In this document: piece by piece, positions 2,307-14,472 of the stretch
Position numbering within the stretch: the first letter of the stretch is position 1
How the letters are laid out: every line of letters begins with the position of its first letter
The notes under the pieces: model-generated
Database searches by the model: none
What the model was told of the DNA's origin: nothing
The model's input: only the letters and a program-made list of their open reading frames with translations
Made by a program: the position numbers and the translations under genes
Source: Alkalicella caledoniensis
GTDB taxonomy: Bacteria > Bacillota > Proteinivoracia > Proteinivoracales > Proteinivoracaceae
Assembly: GCF_014467015.1 (NCBI RefSeq)
Contig: NZ_CP058559.1
Coordinates: forward strand, 1,612,001 to 1,676,000
DNA length: 64,000 nt
Reading direction: 5' to 3'

Positions 2307-2333
2307 ATAAGACAAGGGAGACCCTTGTCTTAT
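2307..2333 (-). terminator. Terminator overlapping the aminotransferase stop
   Basis: A perfect 12-bp stem (ATAAGACAAGGG 2307-2318 with 2322-2333) with a 3-nt loop includes the stop codon of the aminotransferase gene. The T-run on the minus side is weak. Confidence 0.6.
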
Positions 2334-3448
2334 AATCCACTTATAAACTCTGAAATTTTCTCTAATCCTGCTTTTATCTTTTCTGGGCTGTCTGCATAGC
2401 CAATGCGCACGTATCCTTCCATGTCTAGTGCCTTTCCTGGAACAAGTAGCACTCCTTTTTCTTCTAGCAGTCTGCCACAGAATTCTTCTGATGTCATCCC
2501 AAGATCAAACTTCACAAAAGCAGTGGTTCCTGCCTTAGGTCTTACGTAGGATAGTCTAGGTTCACTGTTAATCCATTTATCAAGTATTTCTATGTTTTCT
2601 TTTACTAAGGTTAGATTTCTATGGATAATTTTATCTAGATTCTCTAGAGCAACAGCTGCTAAACGGTCATCAACCATACTACAGCTAATGGTGTTGTAAT
2701 CTCTGCGTTTACTTAAACTCTTAATGAGGTCAGCTGGTCCTGTAGCCCAACCAATTCTAAGCCCTGCTAGGGAAAATGTTTTAGACATACTTCCTGTGCT
2801 GATACCTTTCTCATATAGGTCAACAATAGATTCTGTAAAGCTTTCACCCTCATGGGTTAGTCCTCGGTATACTTCATCACACAATATATATGCATCATAC
2901 TCTTTAGCGATTTCCACTATTTTTAGCAAGAACTCTTTATCCATTAAAGATCCAGTGGGATTGTTGGGATTACTTATGCAAATCAACTTTGTTCTATCAT
3001 TCATCTGTGCCGTAAGCTCTTCTATATTAGGAAGGTATTTGTTTTCTGCCGTTAGATTTACCGTCTTAACTTGGGCACCTAGGGCTTCTGGTAGGGAGTA
3101 GTGTTGTTGATATGTAGGAATAACAGTTACGACTGTGTCCCCTGGTTCTAGTAATGTCTGAAACACAAGGGAATTTGCCCCAATTGCACCATGGGTTATC
3201 ATAACATTTTCAAAGTCTACTTCTTTATATAATTTTGCTATGGCACTTCTTAGCCTGATTGAGCCATCGATTTCACCGTAGTTAAGTTTCATTTTTAATA
3301 TGTCATTAATAATTTCTTCTTTTTCACCAGATAGACTTAAAAGTTCTTCAACATTAAATGGTTCAACACACGTTTGTGCAAGATTATAAATACAATCACC
3401 TTCACGGGCATTCATCCATATTTCAATGCCAAAATCCTTGATTTTCAT
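2330..3448 (-). CDS. Class I/II pyridoxal-phosphate aminotransferase
   Basis: Fold-type I PLP aminotransferase of 372 residues; it should move an amino group from an amino acid to a 2-oxo acid in the cytosol. Visible motifs are SNPNNPTG (substrate/PLP loop), CDEVYRG (PLP-binding Asp and Tyr) and SMSKTFSLAGLRIGW (Schiff-base lysine). The N-terminal region resembles the group that includes capreomycidine synthase-like and general aspartate-type transaminases, so the substrate is open. It has its own terminator and lies 195 bases after the terminator of the upstream operon, so it is probably a separate unit. It could transaminate products of that operon, which is inference. Confidence 0.85.
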   Translation of the reverse strand: MKIKDFGIEIWMNAREGDCIYNLAQTCVEPFNVEELLSLSGEKEEIINDILKMKLNYGEIDGSIRLRSAIAKLYKEVDFENVMITHGAIGANSLVFQTLLEPGDTVVTVIPTYQQHYSLPEALGAQVKTVNLTAENKYLPNIEELTAQMNDRTKLICISNPNNPTGSLMDKEFLLKIVEIAKEYDAYILCDEVYRGLTHEGESFTESIVDLYEKGISTGSMSKTFSLAGLRIGWATGPADLIKSLSKRRDYNTISCSMVDDRLAAVALENLDKIIHRNLTLVKENIEILDKWINSEPRLSYVRPKAGTTAFVKFDLGMTSEEFCGRLLEEKGVLLVPGKALDMEGYVRIGYADSPEKIKAGLEKISEFISGL

Positions 3449-3643: not shown

Positions 3644-4852
3644 TTACAGGTTTAGCTCTTTTTTAACATGGTTAAGTGCTTGATCAAGATCTGCAATTAA
3701 CTCATCAACGTTTTCAATACCAACAGAAATTCTTACTTGACCTTCTGCGATACCTACTGCTTCTCTTTCTTCTTGAGAAAGTGCGGCATGGCTCATAGAT
3801 GGAGAATGTTGGATTAGAGAGTCAACACAACCTAGAGAAGTTGCAAGGCTGATTAGTTTAACGCTGTTCATTAGTAATTTACCAGCTTCAAATCCACCTC
3901 TAACATTGAAACTCATCATACCACCGAAATCTTTCATTTGCCTTTTAGCAAGCTCATGTTGTGCATGAGATTTAAGTCCTGGATAAAGAACTTCGTCTAC
4001 CATGTCGTGAGCGTCTAAGAACTCAGCGATTTTACGAGCGTTTGCACAGTGAATTTCCATTCTTGGTCCAAGGGTTTTGATACCTTTAGAGATTTCAGAT
4101 GCATCCATTGGAGAGATGATTCCACCAAACCACTCAAGGTATGGTTGTCTGATTTTATCCATAAGCTCTTGAGAACCTACGATCATACCGCCAACAACAT
4201 CACCATGACCGTTTAGGTATTTAGTAGCAGAGTGTAAAACGATGTCTGCACCTAGCTCCAGTGGTCTTTGAAGGTATGGAGTTGCATAAGTGCTATCTAC
4301 AAATAGTAGAGCGCCACCTTCGTGAGCAATGTCTGCAACTGCTTGAATGTCAGTAATTCTTAGAACTGGGTTACATGGAGTCTCGATATATACAACTTTT
4401 GTGTTTGGTTTCATAGCAGCTTTAATAGCTTCTGGTTCAGTGGTGTTTACCATTGTTACTTCAACACCGTAAGTTGGTAGTAAGTCTCTTACGAATCCGT
4501 AAGTACACCCGTAGATGATATCTCCTACTACTAAGTGATCTCCTGCCTTAAGGTTAGCCATAAGAGCAGTTGTGATAGCAGCCATACCAGATGCAGCAGC
4601 TAAAGCAGCTTCTGCTCCTTCTAGAGCAGCTACTTTCTCTTGAAGTGCGTCTACAGTTGGGTTGCCAAATCTACCGTAAGCGTAGCCTTTTTCTTCACCA
4701 TATCCAATTCTGATTGCTCTTTCTACGTTTTCGATTACGAAAGTGGAAGTACGGTATACTGGTGCAACGTGTGCTCCTGTTGTTGGGCAGTGTTCACTAC
4801 CAGCATGAATTGCTCTTGTATTAAATGAAAGATTTTTTCTGTCCATTTTCAT
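3644..4852 (-). CDS. Methionine gamma-lyase-like PLP enzyme (Cys/Met metabolism family)
   Basis: A 402-residue fold-type I PLP enzyme of the trans-sulfuration family. The Schiff-base lysine is K211 (SATKYLNGHGD), the PLP-ring aspartate is D186, and the active-site loop reads IYGCTYGF with Cys116. A Cys at this place, with Tyr114 and the same numbering as the Pseudomonas enzyme, is the hallmark of methionine gamma-lyases; cystathionine enzymes usually have Gly or Asn there. Family members eliminate the gamma substituent of an amino acid, giving 2-oxobutyrate and ammonia. It is the last gene of an operon with a TRAP transporter and two amide hydrolases, so its true substrate may be a product of those (for example 2,4-diaminobutyrate) rather than methionine. 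That is inference. Confidence 0.85.
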   Translation of the reverse strand: MKMDRKNLSFNTRAIHAGSEHCPTTGAHVAPVYRTSTFVIENVERAIRIGYGEEKGYAYGRFGNPTVDALQEKVAALEGAEAALAAASGMAAITTALMANLKAGDHLVVGDIIYGCTYGFVRDLLPTYGVEVTMVNTTEPEAIKAAMKPNTKVVYIETPCNPVLRITDIQAVADIAHEGGALLFVDSTYATPYLQRPLELGADIVLHSATKYLNGHGDVVGGMIVGSQELMDKIRQPYLEWFGGIISPMDASEISKGIKTLGPRMEIHCANARKIAEFLDAHDMVDEVLYPGLKSHAQHELAKRQMKDFGGMMSFNVRGGFEAGKLLMNSVKLISLATSLGCVDSLIQHSPSMSHAALSQEEREAVGIAEGQVRISVGIENVDELIADLDQALNHVKKELNL

Positions 4853-4893
4853 GTTAAAATTCCTCCTAGATCAAGTATTTATATTTCAAATTA

Positions 4894-6063
4894 TTATTTA
4901 ACGAATAGTTTTCTTTCGAAGTTAGCTAAAGCTTCACAGCCATTTTTTGTAACTCTGATTGTTTCACTGATTTCGAAACCGAAATCGTCGAACCACATAC
5001 CAGGTATCACGTGGAATGTCATGTTTTCTTTAACAACAGTTTTGTCGCCAGGTCTTAAGCTTATTGTGTGCTCGCCCCAGTCTGGTGGGAAGTTAAGTCC
5101 TGTAGAGTAACCTATACGGGACTCTTTTTCTAAACCATACTTCCTTAGAACACTTGCCCAAGTTGCTTCTATTTCTTCACATGTTACACCTGGTTTAATG
5201 AAGTCTAAAGTTTTGTTGATACCTTCAGCTACGATATCAGCAGTTCTTTGCATTTGGTCAGTTGGTTTTCCTAGGAATATAGTCCTAGCCATAGGAGAGT
5301 GATATCTTTGGTGACATCCAGCTAATTCAAGGATAATTGCATCCCCTTCTTTATACTTTCTATCAGTCCAAGTTAAGTGACAGGCACCTGTGTTTTCTCC
5401 AGAAGGCATTAGAGGAACGATTGCAGCATAGTCACCACCGAATTCTTCTGTACCAGTTAGGTAAGAACGATAGATCTCAGCAGCTAGGTCACATTCTCTT
5501 ATACCTACTTCAGCTTTAGCTATTGCATCTGCCATGCCGATTTCACTGATTTTAGCCGCACGCTGCATAAGAGTGATTTCATTTTCAGACTTTACAATTC
5601 TCACCCAGTTTACAAGCTCTTTTGCGTCTACAAAACTTGCATTTGGTAAACTTTTATTTAACTCCATGTAGCATTTTGCTGTGAAGTAGTAGTTATCCAT
5701 TTCAACAGCTACAGTTTTGTTGCCTTGGCCTCTTTTTATAAGCTCATTAGCGATAAAGTTCATTGGATGTTTTATTTCGTTTTGAACATAGTCATCACCG
5801 TATTGGATGATATTTTCTCTTTTTAACCATGTTGTTTTTTGAGCACCTAGTTGGTCAATACCACGGCCAATCCAGATAGGTTCTTCTTCATCTAGCATAA
5901 CAACTAGCATTTGGTGTACATAGAATGACCATGCATTGTAGCCAGAGATATAGCACATATTAGCAGGGTCAGTTACTAGTAATACTTCAATACCTCTTTC
6001 TTCCATCTTAGCCTTAACATTTTTTACGCGATTTTGAAACTCTTCACGACTAAACGCCAGCAT
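4894..6063 (-). CDS. Creatinase/M24-fold hydrolase, ectoine hydrolase (DoeA/EutD)-like
   Basis: A 389-residue pita-bread-fold protein. Metal-dependent M24 peptidases have two aspartates in the segments (I/L)DxG and SDxTRT. Here they read LELAG and SPMART, so the dimetal site is lost, as in creatinase and ectoine hydrolase. The N-terminal stretch SGYNAWSFYVHQML and the overall layout and length fit the DoeA/EutD family as I remember it, whose members open the ectoine ring to N-acetyl-2,4-diaminobutyrate. It sits between a TRAP transporter and a gamma-lyase, 35 bases after dctP. Automatic annotation would probably call it Xaa-Pro peptidase; the lost metal ligands argue against that. The exact substrate is not proven. 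Confidence 0.8.
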   Translation of the reverse strand: MLAFSREEFQNRVKNVKAKMEERGIEVLLVTDPANMCYISGYNAWSFYVHQMLVVMLDEEEPIWIGRGIDQLGAQKTTWLKRENIIQYGDDYVQNEIKHPMNFIANELIKRGQGNKTVAVEMDNYYFTAKCYMELNKSLPNASFVDAKELVNWVRIVKSENEITLMQRAAKISEIGMADAIAKAEVGIRECDLAAEIYRSYLTGTEEFGGDYAAIVPLMPSGENTGACHLTWTDRKYKEGDAIILELAGCHQRYHSPMARTIFLGKPTDQMQRTADIVAEGINKTLDFIKPGVTCEEIEATWASVLRKYGLEKESRIGYSTGLNFPPDWGEHTISLRPGDKTVVKENMTFHVIPGMWFDDFGFEISETIRVTKNGCEALANFERKLFVK

Positions 6064-6098
6064 TTATATTCACTCCTAATAATATATTTTTAAAAGTT

Positions 6099-7133
6099 TT
6101 ATTTACTGTCTAAAAGCTCTTGGATCTCAGCTTCAAAAAGATCTAAGATTTCATTACCTCTTGTCCCAACTGAATTTCTAAATACTTGCCTTGCTGATAC
6201 ACTTGCATCTCTAAATAATTCTCTTTCTTCGTCTGTTAGCTCTATTATTTTAATATCACTAACTTCCCTTATTTTATCAAGTCTAGTTTTATTTAAGTTA
6301 CGTTGGAATTCGAAGATATGGTCTGTTACTTCTGCAATTACCTCTTCTACCATTTGTCTTGTTGTAGCATCTAAACTATCAATGAAATCAACGTTAGAAA
6401 CCATTGCTGCAACGAAAGCATCTTGGTTAGATAAAATAATATATCTTTGAACCTCATAGAAACTCATTTCTTCAATTGCAAACACTGGATTTACCTGCGC
6501 ATCAATTTGACCTAGCTGTAATCCACTGTAAACTTCCATGTAAGGCATTGGAGTTGGGTTTGCACCATATGCTCTATAACTGGCAATAATTAATGGAGAT
6601 TGCATGGTCCTAATTTTAACACCTGAAAAGTCCTTTGGTGTTCTAATCTCTTTGTTTGTTGTCCAAACATTAAAACCTTCCACAAACCAGCTGTGTACAT
6701 TCATGTCATGTTCTCTGTTTATTTCGTTTAAACGCTTAATAGCTTGAGATTCATCTAGCATTGTCTTAATGTCCTCTTCATCGGAAGGCAGTAAGAAATG
6801 GTTGTAAAAAATATTGTTTTCAGGTACAGTTGTTGAACTACTACCTGGGTTTACTATGGCAAAGTTTAATAGCCCTTCTTGAATAAATTCTACGTGGTCT
6901 ACGTGGTTTCCAATTTCACCAGTTCTGTATACTTCCACTTCTATAGACCCGTTACTTCTTTCCTCAATAAGTCTTTTGAATTCTAAAGCAAATTCATCCA
7001 TAACACCGCCAACAACTTCTTCATGGCCAATTCTCCATGTTGTTACACCATCATCTACGATTTCTGCACAACCTGCAGTAAAGGTTAAAGTTAATAATAC
7101 TAAACATATAGATATAAGTTTAAAGGCTCGCAT
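6099..7133 (-). CDS. dctP: TRAP transporter substrate-binding lipoprotein (DctP family)
   Basis: Extracytoplasmic binding protein of a tripartite sodium-driven importer, 344 residues. It starts with a lipoprotein signal peptide (MRAFKLISICLVLLTLTFTAG, with the lipobox Cys next), so it is anchored to the outer face of the membrane. The family arginine and asparagine region is visible around VKIRTMQSPL and GQIDAQVNPV. It follows the large membrane subunit by 30 bases. In this family the ligand is usually a carboxylate or a zwitterion such as ectoine, and the neighbouring hydrolases suggest an acylated or cyclic amino acid. Confidence 0.9.
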   Translation of the reverse strand: MRAFKLISICLVLLTLTFTAGCAEIVDDGVTTWRIGHEEVVGGVMDEFALEFKRLIEERSNGSIEVEVYRTGEIGNHVDHVEFIQEGLLNFAIVNPGSSSTTVPENNIFYNHFLLPSDEEDIKTMLDESQAIKRLNEINREHDMNVHSWFVEGFNVWTTNKEIRTPKDFSGVKIRTMQSPLIIASYRAYGANPTPMPYMEVYSGLQLGQIDAQVNPVFAIEEMSFYEVQRYIILSNQDAFVAAMVSNVDFIDSLDATTRQMVEEVIAEVTDHIFEFQRNLNKTRLDKIREVSDIKIIELTDEERELFRDASVSARQVFRNSVGTRGNEILDLFEAEIQELLDSK

Positions 7134-7163
7134 TTTAGTCCCCCTTTTTTTATAGCAAAACTT

Positions 7164-8438
7164 TTATAAAAACCTTGTAGTAAATAAAGCAATTTCTGGG
7201 AAAAAGATCATTAGTATTGATACGATAACAAACATTATCATATATGGCGCTAAACCTTTAACAACTTGTGAGTAAGATTTGTCAAACACTGCACATGCTG
7301 TAAAGATGTTACAACCAAAAGGTGGTGTAACTGCACCAATTGCAGATTGTAAAGTTACGATAATACCAAGGTGTAATGGATCAATTCCAGCTGCTATGGC
7401 AGGTCCAATAAATATTGGAGCCAATATGATAATAACAACAAGTTGATCAACAAACATACATCCAATGAAGTAGAAAATTGTTACTACAAATAGTATCCAT
7501 AATGCTGAAGGGTCAGTACCTAAGATTGATGCACTTATCATTTGAGGTATTCTAGCTAGGGATATTACCCATGAGAAACCCATACCTGCGGCAACTAGTA
7601 CGAATACAACTGATGTAACCATACCAGATGATAATGCTATACTTGGAATATCTTTTATCTTTACTGATTTGAAAATCAATACTTCAAGGATAAATGCATA
7701 TAATACCGAGGCTGCAGCTGCTTCTGTAGGACTAAATAGACCTGTGTAAATACCACCGATAATGATTGCTGGAAAACCCATAGGAAGAATTGCTCTTTTA
7801 AATGCATGTAAGCGCTCTGCCCAAGTTGCTTTAGGTGCAACAGGAATATTGTTCTTTTTAGCAGCAAAGAAGTTATACACTGCGAAGAAAACAAGTATTA
7901 AAAGCCCAGGTCCGATACCTGCTATAAATAGATCTGATACGGAAACACCTGTCATAACTGCATACATAATCATAACAACACTTGGTGGAATAAGCAGTGC
8001 TATATTAGCTGACGAAATAATCAGTGAGTAAATATCTTTTTCTGCATAACCTGCTTTTATCAATCTTTTTTGCATAGGTTTACCGATTGCAACAACTGTC
8101 GCTTGCGTCGAGCCAGATATAGCACCAAAGAATGTACAAGCTGCTGCCGTGGTTATACCCAAACCACCTCTAACATGACCGATAAATCTTTCAACAAAGT
8201 CTAGTAGCCTGTCTGCTGTTTGTCCTGTACACATAATATCAGCAGCAAATATAAACATCGGAACAGCTAACAGAACAAATACTTCAACCCCTGATACCAT
8301 CTGTTGTACTAAGAATACGGGATCGATCTCAGGCATAAATACTAAAACTACTGCCAGTGGACTTAAAAGCAAGGATACTTTTAATGGAAAACTAAGCAAC
8401 ATAAAGATAACTAGTATTGACATTAACAATAAGACCAT
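7164..8438 (-). CDS. dctM: TRAP transporter large permease (DctM family)
   Basis: The 424-residue large membrane subunit carries out sodium-coupled transport together with DctP and DctQ. The sequence is almost wholly hydrophobic with about 12 membrane segments. It shows the family stretches AVPMFIFAADIM, FGAISGSTQATVVAIG and TPPFGCNIF, the last two being the hairpin regions that form the substrate and sodium sites in related elevator transporters. It is the normal family length and lies 31 bases after dctQ. Confidence 0.92.
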   Translation of the reverse strand: MVLLLMSILVIFMLLSFPLKVSLLLSPLAVVLVFMPEIDPVFLVQQMVSGVEVFVLLAVPMFIFAADIMCTGQTADRLLDFVERFIGHVRGGLGITTAAACTFFGAISGSTQATVVAIGKPMQKRLIKAGYAEKDIYSLIISSANIALLIPPSVVMIMYAVMTGVSVSDLFIAGIGPGLLILVFFAVYNFFAAKKNNIPVAPKATWAERLHAFKRAILPMGFPAIIIGGIYTGLFSPTEAAAASVLYAFILEVLIFKSVKIKDIPSIALSSGMVTSVVFVLVAAGMGFSWVISLARIPQMISASILGTDPSALWILFVVTIFYFIGCMFVDQLVVIIILAPIFIGPAIAAGIDPLHLGIIVTLQSAIGAVTPPFGCNIFTACAVFDKSYSQVVKGLAPYMIMFVIVSILMIFFPEIALFTTRFL

Positions 8439-8469
8439 TTATCATTTCCCCCTTTTTTTAGTGGATTTT

Positions 8470-9036
8470 TTATAGTTCTTCTGAAGTTGTTATCCCAGTT
8501 AAGTCAGCAAAAGTTTCTGCTTCTTTATCTGGTCCTTCATTACCGGAGTAAATCTCATCTTTATGGATTACATTAAGCACGAAGTTTACAAGATTTTGAA
8601 CTCCACCCATAAAAAATCCAATTGGGAAGAACATAACTACTACATATCTGGCCCATTCTAGAGCCGGTGTTACACGTCCTCTACTTGCTACCATTAGAGT
8701 GTACCTTAGTCCTAGGTAAGCGAAATAGAACATAACTACCATTGTTACAAAAGAAACTATCAGTGTTAGAATCTTTTTTACCTTGAAAGATGACATGTCG
8801 TAAATTGCAGTCATTCTTATGTGTTTACCTTTACGGGTAGCGTAACTAATACCAACGAATGTAACAACTACAACCATGAACTGACCTATTTCCTCAGCAA
8901 AAGACCATGAGTTGTTAAATACTGCACGCATTATAACGTTACCAATCAAAAGTAATGACATTGCAATTACACCAAAACTTAAAATAAATGCTTCTAGCTT
9001 ACTTAAAATCTGATCAACTTTTTTTAATATAGACAT
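8470..9036 (-). CDS. dctQ: TRAP transporter small permease (DctQ family)
   Basis: A 188-residue protein with four membrane segments, the small subunit that supports DctM. The conserved tryptophan/glutamate stretch SWSFAEEIGQFMVV is present. It has a clear ribosome site (GGAGGGAAGC before ATG 9036) and lies 32 bases after the M20 hydrolase gene, inside the same operon. Confidence 0.88.
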   Translation of the reverse strand: MSILKKVDQILSKLEAFILSFGVIAMSLLLIGNVIMRAVFNNSWSFAEEIGQFMVVVVTFVGISYATRKGKHIRMTAIYDMSSFKVKKILTLIVSFVTMVVMFYFAYLGLRYTLMVASRGRVTPALEWARYVVVMFFPIGFFMGGVQNLVNFVLNVIHKDEIYSGNEGPDKEAETFADLTGITTSEEL

Positions 9037-9068
9037 TGCTTCCCTCCGCCCTTTTTTTTAATAACTTC

Positions 9069-10247
9069 TTATTTCTTGGGAGACAAATACTCTAACGCTG
9101 TTCTAACATGCATTTCTACTCCGATGCTTAACGAATCCTCATCTATATTGAATTTTGGATGATGATGTGGATAGTGAGCATCTTTTGCTTCATTACCTGC
9201 ACCTACGAAGTATAGTGTAGATGGAATTCCTATTGTGAATTCGGAGAAATCCTCACCTGCCATGGTAACATATGGGACAATGTTTTCTTGTCCTACAATA
9301 CTAGCAGCTATACCTTTTACAAATCCCGCCATTTTAGCGTCATTAACAACTGGGAAGTTACAAGGTATGAACTCCATCTCATAGCTGGCTCCAAATGTTT
9401 CACAAATACCAGCTATAATTCTTTCCATACGTTTCCTTGGCTTCTCTGGCGTGTCAGGTCCTCCTTCATATAGGTATCTTAGTGTTCCTTGTAATTCTAC
9501 TTCTTCGGGGATAATGTTAGGAGCAGTTCCCCCATGTATCATTGAAAAATTGATTACCGTAGGTTTTAAGGCGTTAATCTCTTTAGTGGTTATAGCTTGG
9601 GTAGCCACAATAACCTGTGAGGCAATCAAAACTGGATCAATAGCGTTGTGTGGTGAAGATGAATGTCCACCTTTACCTTTAATCTTTACTTTAAAGTTCT
9701 CATGGGCACCCATAACGGCCCCTTCTGAAACACTTATTTTCCCAACTTCAATGGGTGTCCATAAATGGATGGCAGCGCAGGCGTCGACAGTTGGGTTTTG
9801 CAATACACCCTCTTCAACCATAAACTTTGCTCCTGCATCTTCTTCATTAGGTTGGAAAACAAACTTAACGTTTCCATGAAGCATGTCTTTGTTAGAGCTT
9901 AAAATTTTAGCTGCAACTAGTAGCATAGCAACGTGCCCATCATGAGCACAAGAGTGCATTACTCCTTCATTTAGGGATTTGTATGGAACATCTGCTTCTT
10001 CAGTCATTGGAAGTGCATCCATATCCCCTCTTAGTAGCAAGGTAGGTCCAGGGTTGTCCCCCTTAAGCAATCCTACTACTCCTGTCTTAGCCATTTTTTC
10101 AACTTCTAGGCCACATTGCTTTAAATATTCTTCAACTACTCTTTGTGTTCTGAACTCTTGAAACCCAAGTTCGGGATATTTATGGAAATCCCTTCTCAAA
10201 TTTATAAGTTCTTCTTTCAAGTTACTAACTAATGCCTTTACATCCAC
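9069..10247 (-). CDS. M20-family amidohydrolase (N-acyl amino acid deacylase)
   Basis: A 392-residue dimetal amidohydrolase of the hippurate/aminoacylase group, which cleaves N-acyl groups from amino acids in the cytosol. Metal ligands are visible as CAHDGH (about residues 104-109), QPNEEDAG, the His of IHLW, and HYPHHHPKF near the C-terminus. GTG 10247 is the start, with AGGTGG 8 bases upstream. It is the first gene of the operon and is read from a consensus promoter with a tandem operator. In the pathway I infer, it would deacetylate the product of the DoeA-like enzyme, a step that DoeB (a different family) performs in known ectoine degraders. Confidence 0.88.
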   Translation of the reverse strand: MDVKALVSNLKEELINLRRDFHKYPELGFQEFRTQRVVEEYLKQCGLEVEKMAKTGVVGLLKGDNPGPTLLLRGDMDALPMTEEADVPYKSLNEGVMHSCAHDGHVAMLLVAAKILSSNKDMLHGNVKFVFQPNEEDAGAKFMVEEGVLQNPTVDACAAIHLWTPIEVGKISVSEGAVMGAHENFKVKIKGKGGHSSSPHNAIDPVLIASQVIVATQAITTKEINALKPTVINFSMIHGGTAPNIIPEEVELQGTLRYLYEGGPDTPEKPRKRMERIIAGICETFGASYEMEFIPCNFPVVNDAKMAGFVKGIAASIVGQENIVPYVTMAGEDFSEFTIGIPSTLYFVGAGNEAKDAHYPHHHPKFNIDEDSLSIGVEMHVRTALEYLSPKK

Positions 10248-10308
10248 TTAAGACACCACCTTTTTTTGTCTTTGTCTTATCTCTAATTTTGGTCGTATAT
10301 CATTTTAT

Positions 10309-10341
10309 AGAATGGTTGTTCTAAATTAGAACCATCGTTCT
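10309..10341 (-). promoter_or_regulatory. Tandem operator, likely for the neighbouring IclR regulator
   Basis: Two 14-bp half-palindromes, AGAATGGTTGTTCT (10309-10322) and AGAACCATCGTTCT (10328-10341), both of the form AGAA-N6-TTCT, repeat with a 19-bp period. They lie just downstream of the -10 box of the operon promoter, where a bound protein would block initiation. An IclR-family gene lies 270 bases away, and IclR proteins bind paired palindromes. The assignment is inference. Confidence 0.65.
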
Positions 10342-10349
10342 GCAATTTC

Positions 10350-10378
10350 ATTATAGTTTATGATTTATTAATTTTCAA
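10350..10378 (-). promoter_or_regulatory. Sigma-A promoter of the M20-TRAP-hydrolase operon
   Basis: On the minus strand TTGAAA (10378-10373) and TATAAT (10355-10350) are 17 bases apart, close to the ideal housekeeping promoter. About 100 bases separate it from the GTG of the first gene. Confidence 0.8.
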
Positions 10379-10460: not shown

Positions 10461-10493
10461 AAGAGTGATCTCAGAAATTCTGAAGTCACTCTT
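10461..10493 (-). terminator. Terminator of the iclR gene
   Basis: AAGAGTGA pairs with TCACTCTT, extended by CTCAGAA/TTCTGAAG, and is followed on the minus strand by six T residues. It stands between the IclR gene and the operon promoter and keeps the two units apart. Confidence 0.8.
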
Positions 10494-10516: not shown

Positions 10517-11326
10517 TTATTTATTAGACTCAAAACCTAAATGTTTTGATATCTGAAGTATCTCTTTACTTAATTCTTCCCTTAATGTCATTATTTTATC
10601 AACGCCAAATCTAAAGGTGGGTCCACTTACACTCAGGGCTGCAACCACTTCACCTTCATGTCCCCTTATGGGCATTGCTAGACATGTAAGCCCCATAAAG
10701 TACTCCTCGTTATCTATTGCATATCCTTGTTCTTTTACCTTTCTTAACTCTTTAAGAAAGTCTTCAGCGTTAGTTATGGTGTTTTCTGTATATTTTTTAA
10801 AGTCGACATTCTTTATTACTTCACGAACTGTATCTTCATCTAATTCAGCAAATAATATTTTACCTAACCCTGTTGCGTAGATAGGTTCTATTTCACCCAC
10901 ATGAGAATCAATTTTAACCCTTGAATTAGTGTCAGGATCTACTTTTGAAACAACTATTACATCATTTCCTCCCCTAACTCCTAGGTTAACTGTCTCTTGA
11001 AACTTATTACTTATATCTTTAAGAGCCTTAACCTCAAGCTTTTCAACTCTTCTTTGTCTAGGTAGTGCACTGCCAATTTGGAACAGACCCCATCCCAATC
11101 GGTAATTATTATTTTCGAGCCTTTCAACATATTGATAAGCTACTAAAGTGTCCAGTAGCCTGTGAATAGTGCTCTTACCCAAATCTAAAATTTCGTTTAA
11201 TTCGCTTATTCCCAGACCTTGGTCTGTGTCTTGTTGGGCCAGTATATCAATAATCTCCAATGCTTTTTCTAGGGATTGAACTGGGTACTTAGGCCTATAT
11301 AATGGTTTTCTAACTGTTCTTTCCAA
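10517..11326 (-). CDS. IclR-family transcriptional regulator
   Basis: A 269-residue regulator with an N-terminal winged helix-turn-helix (GISELNEILDLGKSTIHRLL, about residues 38-57) and a C-terminal ligand-binding domain of the IclR type (GVRGGNDVIVVSKVD; IYATGLGKILFAELDE; GLTCLAMPIRGHEGEVVAAL). The start is TTG 11326 behind AGGGGGAA. It lies directly upstream of the M20-TRAP operon on the same strand, with its own terminator. The tandem operator in the operon promoter is its probable target. The inducer is unknown, presumably the imported solute or a breakdown product. Confidence 0.9.
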   Translation of the reverse strand: MERTVRKPLYRPKYPVQSLEKALEIIDILAQQDTDQGLGISELNEILDLGKSTIHRLLDTLVAYQYVERLENNNYRLGWGLFQIGSALPRQRRVEKLEVKALKDISNKFQETVNLGVRGGNDVIVVSKVDPDTNSRVKIDSHVGEIEPIYATGLGKILFAELDEDTVREVIKNVDFKKYTENTITNAEDFLKELRKVKEQGYAIDNEEYFMGLTCLAMPIRGHEGEVVAALSVSGPTFRFGVDKIMTLREELSKEILQISKHLGFESNK

Positions 11327-12686: not shown

Positions 12687-14084
12687 TTATACTTCTATAC
12701 CTTTAATTAGCTCTGATTTACTCAGTCTTGTTGCCAACAAACATATTGATGCGGAAACAATAATAGGAACTGTAAAGCTCAATAGTAGCTGATTTGCTAT
12801 AAAAAACGGTATTCCTGATATGATACCTAGTACTGACGAAATCAAAGCCATATTCTCTGTACATTTTTTAGAGTAAAGGCCAAAAAATAGTGGAAAACAC
12901 ACACCAGCACAAACTAGATCAGCCACAAAAAATAGGTAAAGCACACTATATCCCCTAGCTGAGACTAGGGCAACAGGTAAAATCATAATAACTGTAGCTA
13001 TCCTAGCAATCCTTAGAAGCTTTTCTTCTTTGGTGTTTTTAAACAGCCTTTTACTATCTTTTGCAAGGGTCGCTATTATTGAATTCATAAGGGTATCAAC
13101 AGTACTCATAACAAGTACTAGAGCCAATAAAAATAACGCCACTATAAGCCCTGCAGGAAAAATACTATATGCAAGTGAGAAAAGGGCTACTGAAGGATTG
13201 TTACCTTGATTGAAACCTGCAGCTACAATCCCTAGTACCCCAGTTAATATCATTATAGGGAATACTATTATTGTCGAAGTCATCAGTGACTTACTAAGGG
13301 TTTTATTATCCTTACCTGCATATATTCTCTGCCAGTACCCTTGATGAAATAGGTTAGATACAAAAACAGCTATACATAATGTCAGCCCATACTGGATGCC
13401 CCCCCAATTATTAAAACTAAGTAGTTGCGGAGAGTAAGTAGTTATTTGGCTGTGAATGTTATTTATTCCACCCCCATAGTACACAACTCCTACTGTAACA
13501 CCTATCAAAAGAATTATAACAAACACCATCTGAACCATATCTGTAAAAATAGATGCCCGTAATCCACCATAGGCAGTGTATATTACAGTGGCTAATCCTA
13601 CTAGTAAAGCCGTATAAAGCATGGGAACTTCCGCAAGTTCAAAGGCTACTTGCCCTATGGCTGTTAACTCAGCTACTAAATGCACAAGCATATAAAACAG
13701 AGCCACTACAATAGTTAGCAAGTACATTCTGTGCCCATACCTTTTAAGTACGTAGTCTGTAAGGGTACTCCCCGTAGGCATATATTCTTTAACCTTAGGA
13801 CTCAGAACCATAAACGCTATATATAGACTTACTACACCTATAGAATAACCTACTACCGCAGGAATTCCTCCTAAAATCCCTGCTTCGGGAGGAGTAAACA
13901 GCATAAACACGCCTAAGAAAGATGCTAATAACGTAGCCGAAAGCATTTTTTTGCCTGCGGTACCCCTGGCAGTGAGAAATTGATCCATTCCATCTACTTT
14001 GCCGCGACTGTAAAGAACCCCTAAGATAGCAAAAACAGACACAGTACCTAACATCATGAGGAATACATTAAAAGTTGTAAACAT
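12687..14084 (-). CDS. Sodium:solute symporter (SSS family), probable thiamine or thiamine-precursor importer
   Basis: A 465-residue membrane protein with about 13 hydrophobic segments and SSS-family features (MDQFLTARGTAGKKML near the N-terminus, TGSTLTDYVLKRYGHRM, YTAYGGLRASIFTDMVQM, VMSTVDTLMNS). It is in the group close to pantothenate symporters. The leader carries a TPP riboswitch plus terminator, so the substrate is very likely thiamine, HMP or another thiamine precursor, matching the predicted transporter class called ThiV. The family is clear from the protein; the substrate comes only from the riboswitch. Confidence 0.88.
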   Translation of the reverse strand: MFTTFNVFLMMLGTVSVFAILGVLYSRGKVDGMDQFLTARGTAGKKMLSATLLASFLGVFMLFTPPEAGILGGIPAVVGYSIGVVSLYIAFMVLSPKVKEYMPTGSTLTDYVLKRYGHRMYLLTIVVALFYMLVHLVAELTAIGQVAFELAEVPMLYTALLVGLATVIYTAYGGLRASIFTDMVQMVFVIILLIGVTVGVVYYGGGINNIHSQITTYSPQLLSFNNWGGIQYGLTLCIAVFVSNLFHQGYWQRIYAGKDNKTLSKSLMTSTIIVFPIMILTGVLGIVAAGFNQGNNPSVALFSLAYSIFPAGLIVALFLLALVLVMSTVDTLMNSIIATLAKDSKRLFKNTKEEKLLRIARIATVIMILPVALVSARGYSVLYLFFVADLVCAGVCFPLFFGLYSKKCTENMALISSVLGIISGIPFFIANQLLLSFTVPIIVSASICLLATRLSKSELIKGIEV

Positions 14085-14167: not shown

Positions 14168-14192
14168 CAAGAAAGCATTTAAATATGCTAAA

Positions 14193-14290
14193 GGACACTT
14201 TCCTACGCTGGCATTATCCAGATCAGGTAATAGGGATTAAAGATATCATAGGATCTTTTTCTCAGCTGGCCTAACCAACACTCCCAGTGT
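14193..14290 (-). promoter_or_regulatory. TPP riboswitch (THI box)
   Basis: The minus strand holds the conserved core of the thiamine pyrophosphate aptamer: GGCCAGCTGAGA (P2/P3 side; canonical GGCTGAGA) and, further on, ACCTGATCTGGATAATGCC followed by AGCGTAGGAAAGTG. The outer helix P1 can form between ACACT near 14290 and AGTGT near 14195. A terminator follows and then the SSS symporter gene. Confidence 0.95.
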
Positions 14291-14472
14291 TAATATTCAA
14301 TTCTTGATGTTATCTTACCACAGATGACAGAGCTGCGCAATTACGTTTTTTGCCGGAGAACTTGCGGTGATTAAGGAAAATTTTAGGTAAAAAGAAGATA
14401 TAATGGCAGGTTTTTTGAATTTTGTGTCTAATACTATACTTATGTGCGTAATTTGAGGGGGGGGAAAGTAAC

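What the first reader, a model, noticed from the sequence alone, without database searches (positions are those of the whole stretch)
3644..10378. Possible anaerobic ectoine-fermentation operon ending in a gamma-lyase
Five kinds of protein sit in one operon behind one promoter: TRAP importer, DoeA/EutD-like ring hydrolase (M24 fold with metal ligands lost), M20 deacylase, and a PLP enzyme with all methionine gamma-lyase residues (Cys116, Lys211, Asp186). Known aerobic ectoine breakdown uses TRAP or ABC import, DoeA, DoeB deacetylase, then transamination of 2,4-diaminobutyrate. Here DoeB is absent, but an M20 deacylase could replace it. Diaminobutyrate carries a gamma-amino leaving group, so a gamma-lyase could turn it straight into 2-oxobutyrate and two ammonia, a fermentable product. 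I know of no described pathway of this form. The family calls are from sequence; the chemistry is inference.
Basis: partly seen in the sequence, partly recalled or inferred. Interest (0 to 1): 0.78.

Follow-up and report, generated by a model that had tools for sequence, protein, structure and literature searches.

The report
Predicted anaerobic ectoine-degradation operon with gamma-lyase
A bacterium that looks anaerobic carries a six-gene operon predicted to import the salt-protectant ectoine, open its ring, strip its acetyl group and then cut the resulting diamino acid with a pyridoxal-phosphate lyase, an ending of ectoine breakdown for which no report was found.

Summary
Six tightly spaced minus-strand genes (3644-10247), with one good promoter-like site at 10378-10350, encode an M20 deacylase, a TRAP importer, a close relative of ectoine hydrolase DoeA (46% identical to structure 6TWK, peptidase metal ligands lost) and a PLP gamma-lyase-type enzyme. 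DoeB/EutE was not found in the genome. Gene content suggests an anaerobe (no COX1, five 2-oxoacid:ferredoxin oxidoreductase loci).

One claim is wrong. The lyase does not have all methionine gamma-lyase residues: the hallmark Lys240-Asp241 pair is Glu240-Trp241. It belongs to a 13-member clade (tree support 99/96) in which the pair is broken in every member. Seven of the 13 lie in DoeA operons of several families, one of these a decayed remnant. Five lie in one genus without DoeA. Canonical Lys-Asp lyases sit elsewhere in the genome, so a sulfur role is less likely.

Best explanation: ectoine -> N-acetyl-diaminobutyrate -> 2,4-diaminobutyrate, then gamma-elimination to 2-oxobutyrate and two ammonia. 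Import and ring opening are well supported; the lyase's substrate and product are inferred. Putative ectoine clusters in Bacilli and Clostridia were reported in April 2026, but I found no gamma-lyase ending described. New variant of a known kind.

The parts
9069..10247 (-). M20 amidohydrolase, predicted N-acetyl-2,4-diaminobutyrate deacetylase (DoeB replacement)
   Evidence: TIGR01891 352 bits (cut-off 154), DoeB2 model NF038260 269 bits (cut-off 550), CpsA model 398 bits (cut-off 500). Metal-site residues C100, H102, E135, E136, H161, H362 invariant in 29 cluster M20 proteins.
8470..9036 (-). TRAP transporter small permease (DctQ)
   Evidence: PF04290 E=4e-24
7164..8438 (-). TRAP transporter large permease (DctM)
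   Evidence: TIGR00786 364 bits (cut-off 268)
6099..7133 (-). TRAP solute-binding protein of the TeaA/UehA kind
   Evidence: PDB hits 4pfi, 3gyy/2vpn (TeaA), 3fxb (UehA) rank first. TeaA positions E9, R144, N184, F209 kept; W167 is Y; F66 and W188 replaced by S and A.
4894..6063 (-). Ectoine hydrolase DoeA/EutD homologue (M24 pseudo-peptidase fold)
   Evidence: TIGR02993 504 bits (cut-off 613); 6TWK DoeA E=8e-118, 46% identity, Y52, H238, E255, H264, R269, Y329, W339 of 6TWK conserved; prolidase metal ligands lost.
3644..4852 (-). PLP-dependent gamma-lyase-type enzyme, predicted 2,4-diaminobutyrate gamma-lyase; Glu240-Trp241 in place of Lys240-Asp241
   Evidence: PF01053 484 bits; below both MGL cut-offs (499.8 vs 549.7; 508.6 vs 666); clade with DoeA-linked homologues 100/100, 13-member clade 99/96; fold search best hits are MGL structures.
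10350..10378 (-). Promoter-like site TTGAAA-17-TATAAT of the operon
   Evidence: 11 of 12 match; the scan overall found no more sites than shuffles, so position rather than score is the argument
10309..10341 (.). Operator-like 33-bp imperfect palindrome with a perfect 15-bp core GTTCTAAATTAGAAC, probable regulator site
10461..10493 (-). Terminator-like hairpin between the IclR gene and the operon
   Evidence: 16-nt arms, 88% complementary, followed by a T run
10517..11326 (-). IclR-family regulator, probable regulator of the operon
   Evidence: PF01614 and PF09339; a 58% identical homologue lies beside the decayed copy of the operon in G052

Best explanation
The operon most likely lets an anaerobe use ectoine (or hydroxyectoine) as a fermentable carbon and nitrogen source. 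The TRAP system imports it. The DoeA homologue opens the ring to N-acetyl-2,4-diaminobutyrate. The M20 protein removes the acetate. The terminal PLP enzyme forms an aldimine on the alpha-amino group of 2,4-diaminobutyrate and eliminates the gamma-amino group, giving 2-oxobutyrate and two ammonia. 2-oxobutyrate would then be oxidised by a 2-oxoacid:ferredoxin oxidoreductase to propionyl-CoA. Shown here: gene content, order, family placement, loss of the methionine-lyase specificity pair, recurrence. Inferred from families: import, ring opening, deacetylation. Pure inference: lyase substrate, product and downstream fate.
For: DoeA placement and residues. TeaA/UehA-type binding protein. EutE/DoeB not found, and no diaminobutyrate transaminase above its cut-off. 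DoeA + M20 + TRAP is conserved in most clostridial DoeA loci. A lyase clade in which the Lys240-Asp241 pair is broken in all 13 members, with HSP[ST]MSH for HPASMTH: 7 members lie in DoeA operons from several families, including L160 where M20 and DoeA fragments and the lyase remain in order after the importer was lost. L117 carries a canonical Lys-Asp lyase with a sigma-54 regulator and an NhaC-type transporter, and the divergent lyase in the adjacent DoeA operon. The window's genome has two Lys-Asp paralogues elsewhere. In Entamoeba MGL the equivalent Lys234 relays the substrate's amine proton via Tyr108 and Cys110 (PMC5501846). No COX1, five POR loci.
Against: No activity data. I found no report of gamma-elimination of ammonia from diaminobutyrate by this family. 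Six of 13 clade members are not beside DoeA; five (one genus) have no DoeA in the genome and sit with a phosphotriesterase-family hydrolase and a metal-binding-type M24 protein. Most DoeA-bearing clostridia use other terminal enzymes. DoeA and M20 score below their equivalog cut-offs. The binding protein lost two aromatic ligand positions. Position 240 is Glu, Gln, Lys or His within the clade, so an acid for the gamma-ammonium is not universal.
Confidence: 0.45

Rival explanations
1. Same ectoine route, but the PLP enzyme replaces the gamma-amino group with water, giving homoserine and one ammonia, which then enters threonine or aspartate metabolism.
For: Canavanine gamma-lyase, a PLP-dependent gamma-lyase, makes homoserine and hydroxyguanidine from canavanine (PMC10018355). 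In Bacillales the DoeA-linked PLP enzyme (family NF006097/PRK08249, 764 bits against a cut-off of 600) is followed by M20, homoserine dehydrogenase and an aldehyde dehydrogenase, which fits a homoserine route to aspartate.
Against: The window enzyme is not PRK08249 (415.7 bits, cut-off 600), keeps Cys116 where those have Gly, and its operon has no homoserine dehydrogenase.
Confidence: 0.17
2. Ectoine operon with an ordinary sulfur amino-acid lyase carried along; the last gene degrades methionine, homocysteine or cysteine and has no part in ectoine breakdown.
For: Closest structures and models are methionine gamma-lyases; Tyr59, Arg61, Tyr114, Cys116, Asp186, Lys211 kept. Relatives occur without DoeA.
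Against: Lys240-Asp241 pair broken in the whole clade; below MGL cut-offs; recurrent placement inside DoeA operons in several families; canonical paralogues elsewhere in the genome.
Confidence: 0.15
3. The operon handles a relative of ectoine (5-hydroxyectoine, N-acetyl-diaminobutyrate or another N-acylated diamino acid), and the lyase acts on that product.
For: DoeA below the equivalog cut-off (504 of 613 bits); aromatic ligand positions of the binding protein changed (F66S, W188A); five clade members occur with different hydrolases.
Against: DoeA shares 44 invariant positions with the solved enzyme across 43 rows. No EutB or EutC gene, which accompany hydroxyectoine use, lies in this operon.
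Confidence: 0.18

Closest known systems
doe/eut ectoine catabolism of Halomonas elongata, Ruegeria pomeroyi and Methylomicrobium alcaliphilum (DoeA-DoeB-DoeD-DoeC)
   Same: DoeA-type hydrolase, a deacylase next to it, and in R. pomeroyi a TRAP importer of the same kind (UehABC).
   Different: No DoeB/EutE, DoeD transaminase or DoeC dehydrogenase in the operon; M20 deacylase and PLP gamma-lyase-type enzyme instead; IclR instead of EnuR/AsnC.
Putative Bacillales ectoine cluster eutD-eutC-atf + abgB-thrA-adh (PMC13188858, 2026)
   Same: DoeA + Cys/Met-metabolism PLP enzyme ('atf' there, by position) + M20 ('abgB').
   Different: The PLP enzyme there is a separate clade (PRK08249, Gly for Cys116) and is followed by homoserine and aldehyde dehydrogenases; usually EutC and a PucR regulator; no gamma-lyase role proposed in the passages read.
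Methionine gamma-lyase (EC 4.4.1.11)
   Same: Fold, PLP lysine, Cys116, Tyr114, about 50% identity.
   Different: Lys240-Asp241 replaced by Glu-Trp, HPASMTH by HSPSMSH; below both curated cut-offs; DoeA operon context.
Canavanine gamma-lyase
   Same: PLP gamma-lyase removing a nitrogen-containing gamma substituent (known from literature).
   Different: Product is homoserine and substrate is canavanine; not compared by sequence here because no reference sequence was at hand.

Membership tests
Ectoine hydrolase DoeA/EutD | Best match to the DoeA family over other M24 families | tested here: met
   503.8 bits against 109.7 for PepQ, the next non-DoeA model; 6TWK 397 bits against 113 for a prolidase
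Ectoine hydrolase DoeA/EutD | Passes the curated equivalog cut-off (613 bits) | tested here: not met
   503.8 bits. None of the 17 genomes of the phylum with a match passes it either, so the cut-off may be tuned to proteobacterial proteins. For this reason it is called DoeA-like, not DoeA.
Ectoine hydrolase DoeA/EutD | Peptidase metal ligands lost; conserved residues of 6TWK kept | tested here: met
   Prolidase Asp, Asp, His and one Glu ligand positions replaced; Y52, H238, E255, H264, R269, Y329, W339 kept in 43 rows. The residues' catalytic roles were not read from a paper here.
Ectoine hydrolase DoeA/EutD | Hydrolyses ectoine to N-acetyl-diaminobutyrate | not testable with these tools
   needs assay
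TeaA/UehA-type ectoine TRAP importer | Sequence family and polar ligand positions E9, R144, N184 | tested here: met
   choice of positions from memory of the TeaA structure
TeaA/UehA-type ectoine TRAP importer | Aromatic cage F66, W167, W188, F209 | tested here: not met
   F209 kept, W167 is Y, F66 and W188 replaced; positions from memory
N-acetyl-diaminobutyrate deacetylase DoeB2 (M20 type) | Passes NF038260 cut-off (550 bits) | tested here: not met
   268.7 bits
Methionine gamma-lyase | Passes TIGR01328 (549.7) or PRK06234 (666) | tested here: not met
   499.8 and 508.6 bits; the Lys-Asp paralogue in L117 scores 582 on TIGR01328
Methionine gamma-lyase | Cys116 together with Lys240-Asp241 | tested here: not met
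   Cys116 kept, pair is Glu240-Trp241
PRK08249 (Bacillales DoeA-linked PLP enzyme) | Passes cut-off 600 | tested here: not met
   415.7 bits; separate clade
Strict anaerobe / fermenter | No terminal oxidase; ferredoxin-linked 2-oxoacid oxidoreductases | tested here: inconclusive
   No COX1, five POR loci; cytochrome bd not tested, organism not named

The most novel reading that the evidence does not exclude
A new enzyme activity, 2,4-diaminobutyrate gamma-lyase (deaminating), derived from methionine gamma-lyases by breaking the Lys-Asp pair, ends a fermentative ectoine pathway; and clostridia have fitted several unrelated endings (gamma-lyase, glutamate-dehydrogenase-like enzyme plus 2-oxoacid oxidoreductase, folate-linked PanB type, SHMT plus aldehyde:ferredoxin oxidoreductase) to one conserved DoeA-M20-TRAP core.
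Probability: 0.4. Interest if true: 0.75.

Novelty: new variant of a known kind. Interest (0 to 1): 0.6.

Why it matters
Ectoine is a major salt protectant, and its described breakdown is in organisms studied aerobically. If true, this gives a direct anaerobic route from ectoine to acetate, ammonia and a fermentable oxoacid, a new reaction for a well-studied enzyme family, and a simple assay that would test it. It would also help annotate the clostridial and bacillar clusters, which the curated models examined here do not name at equivalog level.

Tried and rejected
Creatinase or prolidase identity of the hydrolase: rejected. Ordinary methionine gamma-lyase: not supported by the pocket residues or cut-offs. 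Involvement of the downstream aminotransferase 2330-3448: not conserved with the cluster and separated by 195 bp that include a hairpin with a T run visible in the sequence. A shared operator in other loci: the 15-bp core was not found in 187 loci. L030's diaminopropionate ammonia-lyase looked like an alternative ending, but it lies with a YgeY gene behind a regulator and is probably a separate locus. The G052 homologue without DoeA first looked like counter-evidence; it proved to be a decayed DoeA operon. The M24 protein beside the lyase in genus g268 appears to keep metal ligands and is not DoeA. The ectoine synthase search is uninformative because no control rang. No held paper on anaerobic ectoine fermentation or diaminobutyrate gamma-elimination was found. 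The canavanine gamma-lyase paper was not held, nor was a DOI I tried from memory for the EutD/EutE structure paper.
Full report
WHAT IS THERE. Six co-directional genes on the minus strand, spaced by 30-41 bp, run from 10247 down to 3644: M20 amidohydrolase, DctQ, DctM, DctP, M24 hydrolase, Cys/Met-metabolism PLP enzyme. All are intact. A TTGAAA-17-TATAAT site lies at 10378-10350, a terminator-like hairpin (10461-10493) separates it from the IclR regulator gene 10517-11326, and a 33-bp palindrome (10309-10341) with a perfect 15-bp core sits just past the -10. The promoter scan as a whole found no more sites than shuffles do, so the site rests on its position. In the sequence after the last gene (about 3640-3600) there is a hairpin followed by a T run, so the operon probably ends there.

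THE HYDROLASE. It scores 503.8 bits on the DoeA equivalog model (cut-off 613) and 110 bits on the next non-DoeA family. The best structures are Halomonas elongata DoeA, 6TWK and 6TWJ, E about 1e-117, then prolidases at 1e-31. The prolidase metal ligands are replaced as in DoeA. Identity to 6TWK is 46%, and 44 positions including Y52, H238, E255, H264, R269, Y329 and W339 are invariant across 43 rows including 6TWK. This is a DoeA-type enzyme. In the phylum sample 17 of 398 genomes carry one and none passes the cut-off, so the shortfall is not peculiar to this protein. None of the sampled genomes of the window's own family or class other than itself carries one, so the operon is patchily distributed and may have been acquired horizontally.

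THE IMPORTER AND DEACYLASE. The binding protein is nearest to 4PFI, TeaA and UehA. At seven TeaA positions that I chose from memory as ligand contacts, E9, R144, N184 and F209 are kept, W167 is Tyr, and F66 and W188 are small; the same pattern is found in most DoeA-linked clostridial binding proteins. The M20 protein keeps its metal site and matches the general amidohydrolase model, with a sub-threshold match to the M20-type DoeB2. EutE is not found in the genome, and no diaminobutyrate transaminase passes its cut-off.

THE LYASE. It is a PLP enzyme of the Cys/Met-metabolism family close to methionine gamma-lyase with Tyr59, Arg61, Tyr114, Cys116, Asp186, Lys211 and Arg374. It lacks the Lys240-Asp241 pair (Glu240-Trp241). 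In Entamoeba methionine gamma-lyase the equivalent Lys234 belongs to the relay Tyr108-Cys110-Lys234 next to the substrate (PMC5501846). The enzyme falls below both methionine gamma-lyase cut-offs. Homologues in DoeA operons of a Tissierellia MAG (L029), G227 (L117), G367 (L118), G412 (L188) and G416 (L189) show the same loss (Gln-Cys, Gln-Thr) and the same HSP[ST]MSH motif, and group with it with full support. G052 (L160) has a 77% identical enzyme; upstream of it are an M20 fragment (76% identical over 72 residues) joined to a frameshifted DoeA C-terminal part (60%), and downstream a 58% identical IclR gene: a decayed copy of the same operon from which the importer was lost. In L117 a canonical Lys-Asp enzyme with a sigma-54 regulator and an NhaC-type transporter lies just upstream of the DoeA operon with its divergent enzyme. 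The window's own genome also has two Lys-Asp paralogues elsewhere. This argues that the operon enzyme has another substrate. Against a strict link, five genomes of one genus (L184, L191-L194) have clade members but no DoeA, and in two of them examined (L192, L193) the gene lies next to a phosphotriesterase-family hydrolase and a metal-type M24 protein; G423 has DoeA only elsewhere in its genome. In one member of that genus (L191) position 240 is Lys and only the Asp is replaced.

MECHANISM. Given DoeA and a deacylase, the expected product is 2,4-diaminobutyrate (for DoeA/DoeB: PMC7192451, PMC8739950). A gamma-lyase acting on it would eliminate the gamma-amino group and release 2-oxobutyrate and a second ammonia. 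That is inference. An alternative is water replacement to homoserine, as canavanine gamma-lyase does with canavanine (PMC10018355). It fits the Bacillales clusters better, where the PLP enzyme (PRK08249, 764 bits) is followed by M20, homoserine dehydrogenase and aldehyde dehydrogenase. The window operon has neither dehydrogenase and its enzyme keeps Cys116, so elimination is preferred. The genome lacks COX1 and has five 2-oxoacid:ferredoxin oxidoreductase gamma-subunit loci, which suits a fermentative fate through propionyl-CoA.

COMPARISON WITH WHAT IS KNOWN. PMC13188858 (April 2026) reports putative ectoine clusters in Bacilli and Clostridia, with 'eutD-eutC-atf' and 'abgB-thrA-adh' in Bacillales. 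By position 'atf' is the Cys/Met-type PLP enzyme seen here in Bacillales and 'abgB' the M20. No gamma-lyase step is proposed in the passages I read. Across clostridial loci the core DoeA-M20-TRAP is largely constant and the ending varies, which makes the terminal enzyme the variable, diagnostic part of the pathway.

VERDICT. New variant of a known kind. Confidence about 0.8 that the operon serves uptake and hydrolysis of ectoine or a close relative, and about 0.45 for the full route to 2-oxobutyrate.

Noticed in passing
L085:4279-16019, L101:4245-14775, L111:3588-14043: DoeA-M20-TRAP clusters (L085 is Anaerotignum neopropionicum) accompanied by a glutamate-dehydrogenase-like enzyme and a three-subunit 2-oxoacid:ferredoxin oxidoreductase: possible route diaminobutyrate to 4-amino-2-oxobutyrate to beta-alanyl-CoA.
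   Followed up: partly
L112:11263-13222, L114:3703-5581, L116:9532-11378, L122:15432-17350: Clusters with the glutamate-dehydrogenase-like enzyme, a PanB homologue and a conserved protein of about 320 aa with no Pfam match; its low-confidence model resembles methylenetetrahydrofolate reductase and PanB barrels. Possible transfer of the aminomethyl carbon to folate, leaving pyruvate.
   Followed up: partly
L105:12454-17227, L107, L108, L109, L068: DoeA clusters with a serine hydroxymethyltransferase homologue and an aldehyde:ferredoxin oxidoreductase: possible hydroxyectoine route through glycine and aminoacetaldehyde.
   Followed up: no
L033:11215-17623 and many Bacillales loci: DoeA, EutC, PRK08249 PLP enzyme, M20, homoserine dehydrogenase, aldehyde dehydrogenase in order: possible diaminobutyrate to homoserine to aspartate route.
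   Followed up: partly
L193:3680-8319, L192:571-5105: A member of the lyase clade in a conserved operon with a phosphotriesterase-family hydrolase, an M24 protein that appears to keep metal ligands, and a DUF6544 protein; no DoeA in the genome.
   Followed up: partly
L160:9180-9962: Decayed DoeA operon: M20 fragment joined to a frameshifted DoeA C-terminal part, importer lost, lyase and IclR genes intact.
   Followed up: yes
window 14183-14295 (-): TPP riboswitch (75.6 bits) upstream of the 465-aa membrane-protein gene 12687-14084, which may be a thiamine-related transporter.
   Followed up: no
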